A stretch of 64,000 bases of DNA. Origin: Niveibacterium microcysteis (GTDB taxonomy: Bacteria > Pseudomonadota > Gammaproteobacteria > Burkholderiales > Rhodocyclaceae). Positions 28,180 to 32,283 of this stretch are shown here, piece after piece. Numbering within the stretch: position 1 is the first letter of the stretch; each line of letters begins with the position of its first letter. The stretch is taken from contig NZ_CP071060.1 of assembly GCF_017161445.1 (NCBI RefSeq), positions 186,001 to 250,000 on the forward strand, in the 5' to 3' direction. Made by a program: the position numbers and the translations under genes. The notes below the pieces were generated by a model that was not told where the DNA came from, did not search any database, and worked only from the letters and a program-made list of their open reading frames with translations.

Positions 28180-29304
28180 ATGGCAGGGCAGCGAAACCAG
28201 GGATTGCAGCGTTGGGGCTGGCTGCTTGCAGGCGCCGTGCTCGCTTCGGCAGCGACGATGGTCGCGCCCGATCTGCTGGCGCGCGTGGCCGGCAACGCGG
28301 CCACGCCACGAGCCGTCACCCCCCGCGGCGAACTGCAGCCGGACGAAAAGGCCACGATCGCCCTGTTCGAGCGCAGCCGCGACGCGGTGGTGTTCATCAC
28401 CACGCGCGAACGGGTACGCGACCTGTGGACCCGCAACGTGATGACCGTGCCGAAGGGCAGTGGCTCGGGCTTCCTGTGGGACGAATCCGGTTACGTCGTT
28501 ACCAACTACCACGTCATCGAGGGCGCGAGCGAAGCGACGGTGCGGCTGGCCGACGGCACGGACTACCGCTCCACGCTGGTCGGCGCCAGCCCCGAGCACG
28601 ACATCGCGGTGCTGCGCATCAAGCTCGGTGACAAGCGGCTCGCGCCGATTCCGCTCGGCAGCAGTGGCGACTTGCGCGTCGGGCAGAAGGTGTTCGCGAT
28701 CGGCAACCCATTCGGCCTGGACTGGACGCTCACCAGCGGCATCGTCTCGGCGCTGGATCGTTCCTTGGGTGAAGACGATGGGCGCGCGATCCACCATCTG
28801 ATCCAGACCGATGCCGCGATCAACCCCGGCAACTCCGGTGGCCCGCTGCTCGATTCGGCCGGCCGGCTGATCGGCATCAACACGATGATCTACAGCCCCA
28901 GCGGGGCGAGCGCCGGCATCGGTTTCGCGGTGCCCGCCGATACCGTCAACCGCGTGGTGCCGGAGCTGATCCGCAGCGGCCGTTACGAGCGCCCCAACCT
29001 CGGCCTGGAGCTGGATGAGCGCATCAACGCGCGGCTCGCCCGCATGTTCGACATGCGCGGCGTGTTCGTCGTCAAGGTCGAACGCGGCTCCGCCGCCGAG
29101 GTGGCCGGCCTGCGTGGCGTGGGCTTCACCGCGAACGGTTCGGTGATCATCGGCGACGTGATCACCGCGGTGGATGGCAAGCCGATCGAATCGGTCGACA
29201 AGCTGCTTGCCCTGCTCGACGACCGCCGCGGCGCGGCGCAGGTGCAGCTCACCGTGACACGGCAGGGTAAATCGGTCGTGGTGCCGGTGCGCACTCCGCG
29301 CTGA
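28180..29304 (+). CDS. DegP/HtrA-family serine protease with one PDZ domain
   Basis: A 374-residue trypsin-like protease with an N-terminal membrane/signal segment (WGWLLAGAVLASAATM). The catalytic triad is His111 in VVTNYHVIEG, Asp141 in EHDIAVLRI and Ser219 in NPGNSGGPLLD. One PDZ domain covers about residues 275-370, so the size is closer to DegS or short DegQ-like proteins than to two-PDZ DegP. It should degrade or chaperone misfolded envelope proteins. ATG 28180 follows ACGGGAGA. It is divergent from the Hsp20 pair with a shared control region. Confidence 0.93.
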   Translation: MAGQRNQGLQRWGWLLAGAVLASAATMVAPDLLARVAGNAATPRAVTPRGELQPDEKATIALFERSRDAVVFITTRERVRDLWTRNVMTVPKGSGSGFLWDESGYVVTNYHVIEGASEATVRLADGTDYRSTLVGASPEHDIAVLRIKLGDKRLAPIPLGSSGDLRVGQKVFAIGNPFGLDWTLTSGIVSALDRSLGEDDGRAIHHLIQTDAAINPGNSGGPLLDSAGRLIGINTMIYSPSGASAGIGFAVPADTVNRVVPELIRSGRYERPNLGLELDERINARLARMFDMRGVFVVKVERGSAAEVAGLRGVGFTANGSVIIGDVITAVDGKPIESVDKLLALLDDRRGAAQVQLTVTRQGKSVVVPVRTPR

Positions 29305-29461
29305 GCCGCATACGGCGCCGTGATGCGCTTGTTGCTCAGGCATGTATCGCCGCGGAAAGCCGCATCACGGCTCGGTGACACACAAGTCCACACAGCCGAC
29401 CTTCCTATTCGCGCCGCGATTTCTTACGCTCAATACGTGACATGAGCTGCCAGCATTGCTT

Positions 29462-29571
29462 GGCGGCGTCGCACACACATCAGTGAGGGCAAACCCGTCG
29501 AAAGGCGGGGACGCAAAGCCTCCGGCCTACGGCGCACAAGCGCTACGGTAGCGGGGTTGCCAACGCCCGCC
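29462..29571 (+). promoter_or_regulatory. Cyclic di-GMP-I (GEMM-I) riboswitch
   Basis: The conserved core is present in order: GGGCAAACC, a GAAA tetraloop, GGGACGCAAAGCCTCCGGCC, a variable stem, and GTAGCGGGGTTGCC. This matches the GEMM-I aptamer of the class that senses cyclic di-GMP. A possible P1 closing helix pairs GGCGGCGT (29462-29469) with bases 29563-29571. It lies in the 348-base leader of the S53 peptidase gene, which it should control. Confidence 0.88.
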
Positions 29572-29618
29572 GGTGATCACCGGCGACACTGCGCAAAGCG
29601 CGCATCGGCGTTGTCGCC
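29561..29618 (+). promoter_or_regulatory. Putative riboswitch expression platform
   Basis: CAACGCC (29561-29567), which also takes part in the aptamer P1 helix, can pair with GGCGTTG (29607-29613). A rival stem pairs GGCGACA (29582-29588) with TGTCGCC (29612-29618). The pairings are mutually exclusive, as expected for a switch. Direction (on or off) cannot be told by eye. Confidence 0.45.
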
Positions 29619-29652
29619 AATCGGCCCTCCGTGACTTGAACCTGGAGTGGCC

Positions 29653-32283
29653 ATGAAGAGAAATTCCCGACTTAAGGCGTCGCAACGCGGCATGCTGCTG
29701 GCGGCATTCGCATCGCTGCTGCTTGCCGCATGCGGCGGCGCTGGCGACGGCGCAAACAGCGCGCCGGCAGCCCAGCCGGTCGTGCTGACCGAAACGACGA
29801 TCGAGGTGCCCGCCGAAACGGTGCCGGCGACCGCCGCGGACCAGCTAGCGCAGCCGGCGTTTCACGTCGCCCCGGTGCTGCTCGACGAGCCGGACGACCG
29901 TGATGCGATCGACAACAGCGCATCGGCGCTGATCCGCCCCCGTGCCCAGTACGTGCCTGCGACGCAGGCAGCCATGAGCAGCCGCCGCCTCACGGTGGAA
30001 TCCCTGCTCACCGCGCGCCGGATGCAGGCGCGCAGCGTGCAGCCGCTCAATGCCGATGGGTCGGTCACGCCGATGGCATCGAGCACCGCGGTGTCCACCT
30101 ACACGCCGGCACAGATCCGCGCCGCCTATGGTTTGCCCGCGCTGCCCGCTTCGGGCACCGCACTGACCTCCGCGCAGGCCGCCCAGTTGGGTGCCGGCCA
30201 GACGATCTACATCGTCGATGCGTATCACGATCCGAATGTCGCCGCGGAGCTCAATGCGTTCAACCAGAAGTTCGGCCTGCCGAGCTGCACCAGCCGTACG
30301 CTCACGACAAGCACCGCACTGCCCTTGCCCGCCCCGGCCGCCACCGACGGCTGCGCGCTGGTGGTGGCCTACAGCAACGCCAGCGGCGCGCTGACAAATG
30401 CCGCGCCGGCCTTCGATTCCGGCTGGGCAACCGAGATCACGCTGGATGTTCAATGGGCGCACGCTACGGCGCCCTTGGCGCGCATCGTGCTGATCGAAGC
30501 GCCCGACCCGTCGCTCAACAGCCTGGTCGGCGCGGTTCGCCTTGCCAACACGATGGGCCCCGGCGTGGTGTCGATGAGCTTCGGTGCCACCGAGGGCAAC
30601 TGGACGAGTTCGGTCGACTCGGCATTCACCGGCACCGGCATGACCTACCTCGCCGCCACCGGCGATTCCGGCGCCGCGGTGTCGTGGCCAGCGGTTTCGA
30701 CCAACGTGGTGGCCGTCGGCGGCACCTCGCTCACCTACACCGGTTCGGGCACGCGAACCGAGATCGCCTGGTCCGGCACCGGCGGTGGTGTCAGCGCCTA
30801 TGTGCCGACGCCGTCCTACCAGGCGAGCGCTGTGCCGGGGGTTGGCAGCCTGCCGCGCCGCGGGGTTGCCGACGTGGCCTTCAATGCTGATCCTTCGACG
30901 GGCCAGTTCGTGGCGGTGATTCCGCCGGGTAGCTCGACGGTCAACTGGATCAGCGCGGGCGGCACCAGCCTGTCGACACCGCAGTGGGCCGGCGTGCTGG
31001 CGGTGGCCAATGCCATGCGGCTGCAAAATGGCAAGACCCTGGTCGGCGCGCCGCATGTGTCGCTGTACGGGCAGATCGGCGCAATTCCCGGGACCTATGC
31101 ATCGGTGTTCGCCGATGTTGCTCAAGGCTCGCACGGAACCTGCGCAAGCTGCTTCGCGCGGACCGGGTATGACCAGCTCACCGGCTTGGGTACGCCGAAT
31201 GTATCGAGCCTGCTGAGCACGCTCGCGGGCAGCAGCGCGGTCGCGAAGGCGCCTGTGGTGTCGCCGGCGTCGATCAGCGGCAAGGTCGGTACGCCTCTCA
31301 GTTTCAGCGTTACGGTGAGCGCGACCAATCCGGTGACGTACACGCTCAGCGGCGCGCCGGCTGGCATGACGATCAGCACTGCGGGTGTGGTGAGCTGGGC
31401 GACGCCGGTGCTCGGCAGCTATGCGGTGACGGTGATCGCCAAGGACAGCAAGACAGCGCTCAGCGGCCAAGGCGTTTACACCGTCAAGATCGAGGCGCCG
31501 CTACCGCCGGCGGTGACCGCCGCGACCGTCAACGGCATGGCGGGTACGCCGCTCTCGTACAGCGTTGCTGTAACGGCCAGCAACCCGGTGACCTACGCGC
31601 TTACAGGCGCCCCGGCCGGAATGGCGATCAGCAGCACAGGTGTCGTCACCTGGGCGAGCCCGGCGTTGGGCACTTACACGGTGACGGTGACCGCGAAAGA
31701 CAGCAAGACCGGCCTGACCGGCCAAGGCGTGCTGAGTGTGAAGATCGCGGCACAGCCGGCGCCGGCCGTGCCATCGGGCGCCATCAGCGGCAAGGTCGGC
31801 ACGCCGCTGTCGTTCAGCGCGGCCGCGGTTGCCAGCAACCCGGTTGTCTACGCGCTGTCCGGTGCACCGGCCGGCATGGCGATCAGCGCGAGCGGCGTGG
31901 TGAGCTGGGCCAGTCCGCTTGCGGGCACCTACACCGTCACCGTGACCGCGAAGGACAGCAAGACTGGTCTGAGTGGCAAGGGGGTCTTCATGGTCACGAT
32001 TGCCAGCGCACCGGCGGGCCCGACGATTACCGCCCCGGCCCTGACCGGGGTGGCCGGCAAGCCATTGAGCGGCACCATCGGCATCTCGAATGTGTCTGGC
32101 GGTGCCATGTCGGTGACCATCACCGGTGTGCCGCTGGGGGTGGCATTCTCGCTCAGCGGTCAGTCGATCGTGCTGAACTGGGCCGCGCCCGTGACGGGCA
32201 GCTACCTGCTGAACATCACAGTCAGGGACGCCGCGGGCCGCACCTCGCAGGCGAGCATGCCGATCACGATCAACGCGAAGTAG
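29653..32283 (+). CDS. Secreted S53 (sedolisin) family serine peptidase lipoprotein with Ig-like repeats
   Basis: An 876-residue protein. The signal peptide carries a lipobox (LLLAAC), so it is predicted to be lipid-anchored. Residues about 150-520 form the S53 domain: Glu261 and Asp265 in TEITLDVQWAHA, the Asp in ATGDSG, Ser439 in GGTSLSTPQ, and the calcium-site end GYDQLTGLGTPN. Three tandem Ig-like repeats of about 84 residues (roughly 533-616, 617-700, 701-786) and a divergent fourth follow. The repeats may reach through or bind a surface. ATG 29653 lies 5 bases after CTGGAG. The GEMM-I riboswitch upstream ties it to cyclic di-GMP, so a biofilm or surface role is likely. Substrate is unknown. 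Confidence 0.9.
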   Translation: MKRNSRLKASQRGMLLAAFASLLLAACGGAGDGANSAPAAQPVVLTETTIEVPAETVPATAADQLAQPAFHVAPVLLDEPDDRDAIDNSASALIRPRAQYVPATQAAMSSRRLTVESLLTARRMQARSVQPLNADGSVTPMASSTAVSTYTPAQIRAAYGLPALPASGTALTSAQAAQLGAGQTIYIVDAYHDPNVAAELNAFNQKFGLPSCTSRTLTTSTALPLPAPAATDGCALVVAYSNASGALTNAAPAFDSGWATEITLDVQWAHATAPLARIVLIEAPDPSLNSLVGAVRLANTMGPGVVSMSFGATEGNWTSSVDSAFTGTGMTYLAATGDSGAAVSWPAVSTNVVAVGGTSLTYTGSGTRTEIAWSGTGGGVSAYVPTPSYQASAVPGVGSLPRRGVADVAFNADPSTGQFVAVIPPGSSTVNWISAGGTSLSTPQWAGVLAVANAMRLQNGKTLVGAPHVSLYGQIGAIPGTYASVFADVAQGSHGTCASCFARTGYDQLTGLGTPNVSSLLSTLAGSSAVAKAPVVSPASISGKVGTPLSFSVTVSATNPVTYTLSGAPAGMTISTAGVVSWATPVLGSYAVTVIAKDSKTALSGQGVYTVKIEAPLPPAVTAATVNGMAGTPLSYSVAVTASNPVTYALTGAPAGMAISSTGVVTWASPALGTYTVTVTAKDSKTGLTGQGVLSVKIAAQPAPAVPSGAISGKVGTPLSFSAAAVASNPVVYALSGAPAGMAISASGVVSWASPLAGTYTVTVTAKDSKTGLSGKGVFMVTIASAPAGPTITAPALTGVAGKPLSGTIGISNVSGGAMSVTITGVPLGVAFSLSGQSIVLNWAAPVTGSYLLNITVRDAAGRTSQASMPITINAK

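What the first reader, a model, noticed from the sequence alone, without database searches (positions are those of the whole stretch)
29462..32283. Cyclic-di-GMP riboswitch controlling an S53 peptidase lipoprotein
A GEMM-I aptamer with all core motifs precedes a large surface-anchored serine peptidase bearing Ig-like repeats. GEMM switches often control surface structures, but a sedolisin-type peptidase as target is notable. It could process adhesins or other surface proteins when cyclic di-GMP changes.
Basis: partly seen in the sequence, partly recalled or inferred. Interest (0 to 1): 0.7.

Follow-up and report, generated by a model that had tools for sequence, protein, structure and literature searches.

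The report
c-di-GMP switch before lipoprotein protease gene
A well-known type of RNA sensor for the bacterial signal cyclic di-GMP sits directly in front of a lipid-anchored protease gene, the pair has stayed together in many related bacteria, and the sequence suggests, without proving it, that the protease is shut down when the signal is high.

Summary
Confirmed: a full-length c-di-GMP-I (GEMM-I) aptamer (29478-29564 +, 85.7 bits, E 1.7e-15) lies 88 nt before the ATG (29653) of an 876-aa S53 (sedolisin/kumamolisin) peptidase lipoprotein with Ig-like repeats. E261, D265, D338 and S439 align with kumamolisin's catalytic residues; no S53 prodomain was recognised. The pairing is conserved: 52 of 54 distinct close loci with upstream DNA carry the aptamer; two sister loci lack it. 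Of 17 distant S53 loci, 1 has one. Neighbouring genes differ.
The shared leader is unusual. A classical P1 is mostly absent; the aptamer's 3' tail pairs downstream (covariation). A GCCCUC element can pair with the ligand-binding strand GAGGGC (96% of cells) and, in the window, also with the Shine-Dalgarno strand. Best model: c-di-GMP frees GCCCUC to hide the ribosome site (OFF). The direction is inferred; folding supports it only weakly. C. difficile's riboswitch-repressed, adhesin-cleaving protease ZmpI/PPEP-1 is a precedent (PMC6366702), so the circuit idea is not new; I found no report of the S53 target or this leader.

The parts
29478..29564 (+). c-di-GMP-I (GEMM-I) aptamer, RF01051
   Evidence: cmscan 85.7 bits, E 1.7e-15, positions 1-87 of 87
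29488..29488 (+). G equivalent to Vc2 G20 (ligand contact; A here would mean the 3',3'-cGAMP type)
   Evidence: Position mapped by me from the Rfam alignment and statements on G20, A14, A47, C92 in PMC6274999 and PMC4744006 (passages); A47 = 29515 and C92 = 29560 by the same mapping
29485..29490 (+). GAGGGC, strand of the aptamer core complementary to the platform
29561..29565 (+). Aptamer 3' tail CAACG, 5' arm of the downstream 'X helix'
   Evidence: 92.6% of cells paired, 5 of 5 pairs with two-sided changes
29609..29613 (+). CGUUG, 3' arm of the X helix
29624..29629 (+). GCCCUC platform element: pairs with 29485-29490 (switch helix) or with the Shine-Dalgarno strand
29623..29652 (+). Shine-Dalgarno hairpin GGCCCUCC...UGGAGUGGCC (SD GGAG 29644-29647)
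   Evidence: MFE structure; SD pairing probability 1.00 against 0.73 in shuffles
29653..32283 (+). S53 peptidase lipoprotein, 876 aa
29731..29733 (+). Lipobox cysteine Cys27
   Evidence: Sequence; conserved in 90% or more of 24 aligned homologues
30433..30447 (+). E261 and D265, S53 catalytic Glu/Asp (spacing 4)
   Evidence: Aligned with kumamolisin E78/D82; invariant in 24 homologues
30664..30666 (+). D338, S53 oxyanion Asp
30967..30969 (+). S439 in GGTS, nucleophile
31255..32280 (+). C-terminal He_PIG / Ig-like repeats (residues 535-876)
   Evidence: Pfam PF05345 E 5e-22, 3 stretches

Best explanation
The 29478-29652 leader is a c-di-GMP-I riboswitch that controls translation of a lipid-anchored, exported S53 endopeptidase. 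SHOWN here: the aptamer, its c-di-GMP-type core, its pairing with this gene in 52 of 54 close loci, and two extra conserved pairings in the leader. INFERRED: without c-di-GMP, the aptamer strand GAGGGC (containing the G20-equivalent) pairs with GCCCUC just upstream of the ribosome site. With c-di-GMP that strand is locked in the binding pocket, GCCCUC is released, its CUC(C) pairs with the Shine-Dalgarno GGAG, and translation falls (OFF switch). The protease would then be made when c-di-GMP is low. More speculative still: its substrates are surface or matrix proteins.
For: Aptamer. Conservation: 23 of 23 relatives in named genomes; 6 of 6 close homologues in the family sample, own included; 29 of 31 further close loci with upstream DNA, four of them the same loci as; 52 distinct close leaders after removing duplicates. 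In the order sample the 5 genomes with a full-length homologue of 58% or more have the aptamer directly upstream. Platform: 43 of 52 leaders have 6 paired bases between core and platform (17.8 expected from shuffles), 40 of them 25-38 nt before the start. Switch helix: 96.3% of cells paired against 34-62% when slid; L015 changes both sides to A-U, and L137 looks like U-A in place of A-U by eye. RNAalifold picks four of these pairs unprompted. X helix: 35 two-sided cells, reached by 0 of 500 shuffles. SD hairpin in the window. Where holding the core shifted SD pairing by more than 0.1 it rose (6 of 50; 0 opposite). The genome has 67 GGDEF matches.
Against: Direction is weak: in 44 of 50 leaders the equilibrium fold keeps the SD about equally paired with or without the core held. 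SD pairing over shuffles is marginal across 50 leaders (0.74 against 0.67, 30 of 50 above, p 0.057); in the eight similar leaders L117-L124 of one genus it is below shuffles in six, equal in one and above in one. Two Curvibacter leaders (L016, L017) have a different, longer platform; folding showed no antiterminator. Three pairs of the switch helix use invariant aptamer letters, so only four cells change on both sides, and the +1 slid version has more (8) though far fewer cells paired. V. cholerae's two class I switches respond in opposite directions (PMC6366702), so direction cannot be borrowed. No binding or expression data exist.
Confidence: 0.58

Rival explanations
1. Same riboswitch, opposite sign: c-di-GMP turns translation ON. 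The ligand-bound aptamer would keep only the outer part of the pairing (GAG/CUC) as a P1-like helix, pulling CUC away from the Shine-Dalgarno strand, or the full switch helix of the free state would itself block the ribosome standby site.
For: The switch helix lies 24-29 nt before the ATG, near the ribosome footprint (footprint recalled); GEMM-I switches of both signs are known (PMC6366702, PMC4744006, passages); equilibrium folds are nearly indifferent.
Against: The best conserved platform letters (GCCC) pair with core bases that ligand binding needs (my mapping); of 8 leaders lacking the outer GCC-type arm, 7 still keep the G and 8 keep a C or U next to it. The six leaders with a clear folding difference point to OFF.
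Confidence: 0.3
2. The peptidase is a general exoprotease for feeding, and c-di-GMP control merely matches it to planktonic or attached life; adhesin release is not its job.
For: Known S53 enzymes are mostly digestive or lysosomal (recalled); Ig-like repeats could bind particles; no shared neighbour points to a substrate in the loci examined.
Against: A lipobox conserved in the aligned homologues and c-di-GMP control in nearly all close loci fit a role at the cell envelope, but do not exclude feeding.
Confidence: 0.5
3. The aptamer senses 3',3'-cGAMP instead of c-di-GMP.
For: GEMM-I variants with A at position 20 do so (PMC6274999, passages).
Against: The G20-equivalent is G in all 50 aligned leaders.
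Confidence: 0.03
4. The pairing is an accident of shared synteny, with no regulatory link.
For: Related genomes could simply keep a block.
Against: Flanking genes recognised by Pfam differ between the window and L004, L006, L014, L015 and L023, while leader and gene stay together and the leader pairings co-vary.
Confidence: 0.02

Closest known systems
c-di-GMP-I (GEMM-I) riboswitches such as Vc2/Vc1 of Vibrio cholerae (RF01051)
   Same: Complete aptamer with ligand-contact G, A, C; 5' leader of an exported protein gene (as Vc1/gbpA); no terminator found in the window, as V. cholerae's are reported not to act by termination (PMC6366702).
   Different: Classical P1 run of 4 bp or more in 3 of 46 parsed S53 leaders against 11 of 28 other GEMM-I loci of the order; the 3' tail instead pairs downstream; target is an S53 peptidase.
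C. difficile zmpI/PPEP-1 (CD2830) class I c-di-GMP riboswitch circuit
   Same: Class I c-di-GMP riboswitch before an exported protease, repressed at high c-di-GMP (predicted here; reported there, PMC6366702, passages).
   Different: There a zinc metalloprotease, termination-type OFF switch, and adhesin substrates under opposite riboswitch control; here a serine-carboxyl S53 lipoprotein, a platform that looks translational, substrates unknown.
Kumamolisin / kumamolisin-As / sedolisin / TPP1 (peptidase family S53)
   Same: Catalytic domain and Glu-Asp-Asp-Ser residues align.
   Different: Lipobox, C-terminal Ig-like repeats, no recognised S53 prodomain; residues 28-144 hold a shorter conserved N-terminal region.
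LapD/LapG periplasmic proteolysis control (recalled)
   Same: c-di-GMP restrains a protease acting on surface proteins.
   Different: Control there is by protein-protein contact, not by RNA.

Membership tests
c-di-GMP-I riboswitch (RF01051) | Covariance-model score above the curated cut-off over the whole aptamer | tested here: met
   85.7 bits against 35, 1-87 of 87
c-di-GMP-I riboswitch (RF01051) | G20, A47, C92 ligand contacts | tested here: met
   G 29488, A 29515, C 29560 by my mapping; these columns are invariant in 50 leaders
c-di-GMP-I riboswitch (RF01051) | P1 helix closing the three-way junction | tested here: not met
   Canonical register 44% of cells paired; 3 of 46 parsed leaders with a run of 4 bp or more. 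P1 is not in the Rfam consensus structure, so membership by the family model stands; a downstream helix starts at the C93-equivalent
c-di-GMP-I riboswitch (RF01051) | Binds c-di-GMP and changes expression of the gene | not testable with these tools
   Needs in-line probing and reporter fusions
Peptidase family S53 | Catalytic-domain homology to solved S53 enzymes | tested here: met
   Profile of 24 homologues: kumamolisin-As E 5.1e-28, TPP1 6e-17, sedolisin 7e-16
Peptidase family S53 | Glu, Asp, oxyanion Asp, Ser | tested here: met
   E261, D265, D338, S439 align with kumamolisin positions 78, 82, 164, 278 counted from the printed alignment; E, D, D, S in 70 of 71 loci, one covered only in part
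Peptidase family S53 | N-terminal prodomain (Pro-kumamolisin type) | tested here: not met
The profile match to the catalytic domain is why I still call it S53
Bacterial lipoprotein | Signal peptide with lipobox | tested here: met
   LLAAC at 23-27, conserved; which membrane and whether surface-exposed is not testable here
zmpI/PPEP-1-like adhesin-release circuit | Protease repressed by c-di-GMP | tested here: inconclusive
   Leader anatomy favours OFF, folding weakly
zmpI/PPEP-1-like adhesin-release circuit | Cleaves own adhesins | not tested
   No substrate search made

The most novel reading that the evidence does not exclude
A mostly P1-less lineage of GEMM-I riboswitches, dedicated to one family of lipid-anchored S53 proteases in Burkholderiales and Rhodocyclales relatives, in which a downstream helix stands in for P1 and one six-base element is claimed either by the c-di-GMP pocket strand or by the Shine-Dalgarno site. 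It would be a Gram-negative, translational counterpart of the C. difficile circuit in which c-di-GMP silences a protease that would shed the cell's own surface proteins.
Probability: 0.22. Interest if true: 0.72.

Novelty: new variant of a known kind. Interest (0 to 1): 0.52.

Why it matters
If the OFF reading is right, c-di-GMP controls an exported protease directly through RNA in a group of betaproteobacteria, besides protein-level systems such as LapD/LapG (recalled). Together with C. difficile zmpI it would suggest that riboswitch-silenced exported proteases arose more than once. The leader with a covarying downstream helix in place of P1 makes a compact, testable question about how GEMM-I aptamers can switch. 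The lineage also offers S53 enzymes without a recognised prodomain.

Tried and rejected
Sigma-70 promoter and terminator scans of 29250-29800 found nothing. A plain fold of the whole leader is only mildly better than shuffles (z -1.58, 16 of 200 as good). Pfam and NCBIfam do not name the catalytic domain. Constrained equilibrium folding to read the switch direction was mostly uninformative; an SD-hairpin shuffle test was marginal. The Curvibacter leaders fold into a stable hairpin with a U run in L017 in both states and show no clear switch in L016; the terminator scan listed hits on the minus strand only, so they were not used for direction. A first script comparing P1 in other GEMM-I loci parsed 8 of 28 and was replaced by one using match coordinates for all 28; the S53 figures (46 of 47 parsed, 47 of the 53 leaders given) come, so the two counts rest on slightly different position finding.

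Papers: GEMM or c-di-GMP riboswitch with sedolisin or S53 gave 0 papers; sedolisin with c-di-GMP gave 1, unrelated by its listing. Broader searches showed nothing on this pairing in the rows listed, which are a part of what matched (30 of 89; 53: 15 of 36,080; 73: 10 of 259; 80: 10 of 24,169; 81: 10 of 397). The paper that named the GEMM motif (Weinberg 2007, recalled) is not held, so its gene table could not be checked.

Rows dropped before counts: A2 holds 50 of 53 distinct leaders (L016, L017 and L106 left out). One search used 52 of 53 (L106 out; the L018 core was not recognised and counts as a miss). Close loci without usable upstream DNA (L104, L134) and a fragment (L139) are not in the 54. 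S53 paralogues listed without a locus (for example the second one of G659) were not examined. Of the 17 distant loci, L107's contig begins about where its gene should start, so it has little or no upstream DNA. L097 (53% coverage) was left out of the tree. The 54 includes eight similar leaders of one genus.
Full report
What is there. The window carries one Rfam match, a complete c-di-GMP-I aptamer at 29478-29564 on the + strand (85.7 bits, cut-off 35, E 1.7e-15). One more was found in the genome (4.85 Mb; 150 of 306 candidates scored), upstream of a DUF4189 protein. Downstream of the first lies an 876-aa ORF from ATG 29653 with a lipobox at Cys27 and Ig-like He_PIG repeats. A single-sequence search of solved structures hits TPP1 (E 3e-13). 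A profile of 24 homologues hits kumamolisin-As (5e-28), kumamolisin, TPP1 and sedolisin, with E261, D265, D338 and S439 on the catalytic positions of kumamolisin. No prodomain was recognised. The nearest named relative (93% over the part held) is an uncultured Uliginosibacterium.

Is the pairing real? A scan of named genomes, which reaches close relatives only, gave 23 loci (54-93% identity; Rhodoferax, Undibacterium, Rugamonas, Curvibacter, Sterolibacterium, Uliginosibacterium and less defined ones). All 23 have an RF01051 match upstream on the same strand. In the window's family, 12 of 150 genomes had any match; the 6 with close homologues, own included, have the aptamer, and 2 distant S53 loci (42-43%) do not. 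In a 399-genome sample of the order, 149 have a GEMM-I match, and the 5 with a full-length homologue of 58% or more have one directly upstream. Two further family searches gave more loci (74 and 195 genomes). Among 51 loci searched with a model built from 27 of these aptamers, 29 close ones and one distant one (L106) match. Close loci without it are L135 and L136; L104 and L134 lack upstream DNA and L139 is a fragment. A search without filters finds nothing credible in L135 and L136. After removing duplicates there are 52 close leaders plus L106, so 52 of 54. Of 17 distant S53 loci only L106 has one; one of these, L107, has little or no upstream DNA.

History. In a tree of the catalytic domain the distant loci, L106 among them, separate from the close homologues. 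L135 and L136 sit together inside the close group (near L015 and L130; exact place weakly supported), so their lack of an aptamer looks like a loss. L135 still has a CCCTCC...GAGAG stretch before the ATG; L136 keeps only the GAGAG part. L106 lies among loci without aptamers, so it may be a second acquisition or a relic (its neighbours' support is 0.36). Flanking genes recognised by Pfam differ between the window (trypsin/PDZ upstream, DHDPS downstream) and L004, L006, L014, L015, L023, so the unit is leader plus gene, not a larger block.

Leader anatomy. Alignment A2 of 50 leaders shows, beyond the aptamer, a nearly invariant GCCCU element, in most leaders 25-38 nt before the start codon, and a CRUUG-type element a few bases upstream of it. 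(i) GCCCUC is complementary to GAGGGC of the aptamer core. Six paired bases occur in 43 of 52 leaders, 17.8 expected. In fixed register 96.3% of cells pair, against 34-62% when slid; three of six pairs have two-sided changes, but in four cells only, and the +1 slide has eight such cells. The consensus fold finds four of the pairs unprompted. (ii) The aptamer's 3' tail, from the C93-equivalent on, pairs with the CRUUG element: 92.6% of cells (slides 23-72%), five of five pairs with two-sided changes, 35 such cells, reached by none of 500 shuffles. The tool warns that such shuffles ignore relatedness. A classical P1 is not supported (44% of cells); a run of 4 bp or more exists in 3 of 46 parsed leaders, against 11 of 28 other GEMM-I loci of the order. 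In those 28 a downstream helix of 5 bp or more is no commoner than chance (15 seen, 15.2 expected); in the S53 set it is (38 of 46, 18.9 expected). (iii) Bases of GCCCUC also pair with the Shine-Dalgarno strand; in the window GGCCCUCC...UGGAGUGGCC. Some lineages have their own strong versions, for example CUCGCUC/GAGCGAG in L125-L128, CUCUC/GAGAG in L130 and CUCCA/UGGAG in L131; others, such as L117-L124, have weak ones (structures).

How it probably works. G20, A47 and C92 are named as the Vc2 contacts in PMC4744006 (passages). PMC6274999 (passages) gives the junction layout of the related cGAMP aptamer and uses the G20A mutant. By my mapping G20 is 29488, inside GAGGGC. Pairing of that strand with GCCCUC and ligand binding should therefore exclude each other. 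Freed GCCCUC can close the Shine-Dalgarno hairpin, which predicts repression by c-di-GMP. Supporting this, 7 of 8 leaders without an outer GCC-type arm still keep the G that pairs with the pocket strand. Against it, thermodynamic folding leaves the Shine-Dalgarno site paired in most leaders whatever the state: 6 of 50 shift by more than 0.1, towards OFF, none opposite, 44 do not. The hairpin exceeds shuffles only marginally over all leaders (p 0.057). I put OFF at about 0.6 and ON at about 0.3.

What it resembles. In C. [quoted passage not shown] ZmpI/PPEP-1 cleaves two surface proteins that are themselves induced through class II riboswitches (PMC6366702, passages). So the idea of a riboswitch-silenced exported protease is already in print. 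What I did not find, in the searches and 81 of the held library (of the larger result sets only the listed rows were seen), is an S53 target or this leader architecture; the original GEMM paper is not held. The 29 best GEMM-I loci outside the window precede, as far as read, DUF1631 proteins (two checked by Pfam, nine more by similar N-termini), two S53 and two S8 peptidases, a type IV pilin and others.

Limits. No binding, expression or cleavage data exist. The role in adhesion is a suggestion by analogy.

Noticed in passing
L003:5763-5853 (-), second GEMM-I found in the same genome (G000:C1:1685762-1685852): Second c-di-GMP-I aptamer (77.1 bits) upstream of a DUF4189 protein (E 8.5e-12).
   Followed up: partly
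L047 and L052 (GEMM-I at 1501 in each): c-di-GMP-I aptamers upstream of S8 subtilases with fervidolysin-type prodomains in other genomes of the order: another secreted-peptidase target.
   Followed up: partly
L064, L066 (L068 has a similar aptamer region): GEMM-I aptamer before a small exported-looking protein with a HELGH motif (possible metallopeptidase; the L064 protein has no Pfam match).
   Followed up: no
L045, L049, L053, L058, L060-L062, L069-L072: DUF1631 proteins look like the commonest GEMM-I target among the 29 best loci of the order (L045 and L062 confirmed by Pfam; the rest by similar N-termini).
   Followed up: partly
L135, L136 upstream of the S53 gene: No aptamer; the region differs, and L135 keeps what looks like a platform remnant (CCCTCC...GAGAG) before the ATG.
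   Followed up: partly
L016, L017 (Curvibacter): Longer leaders with a hairpin plus U run soon after the aptamer, perhaps a transcription-termination platform in this genus.
   Followed up: partly
window 29734-30084 (residues 28-144 of the S53 protein): Conserved N-terminal region in place of the usual S53 prodomain; no family match.
   Followed up: no
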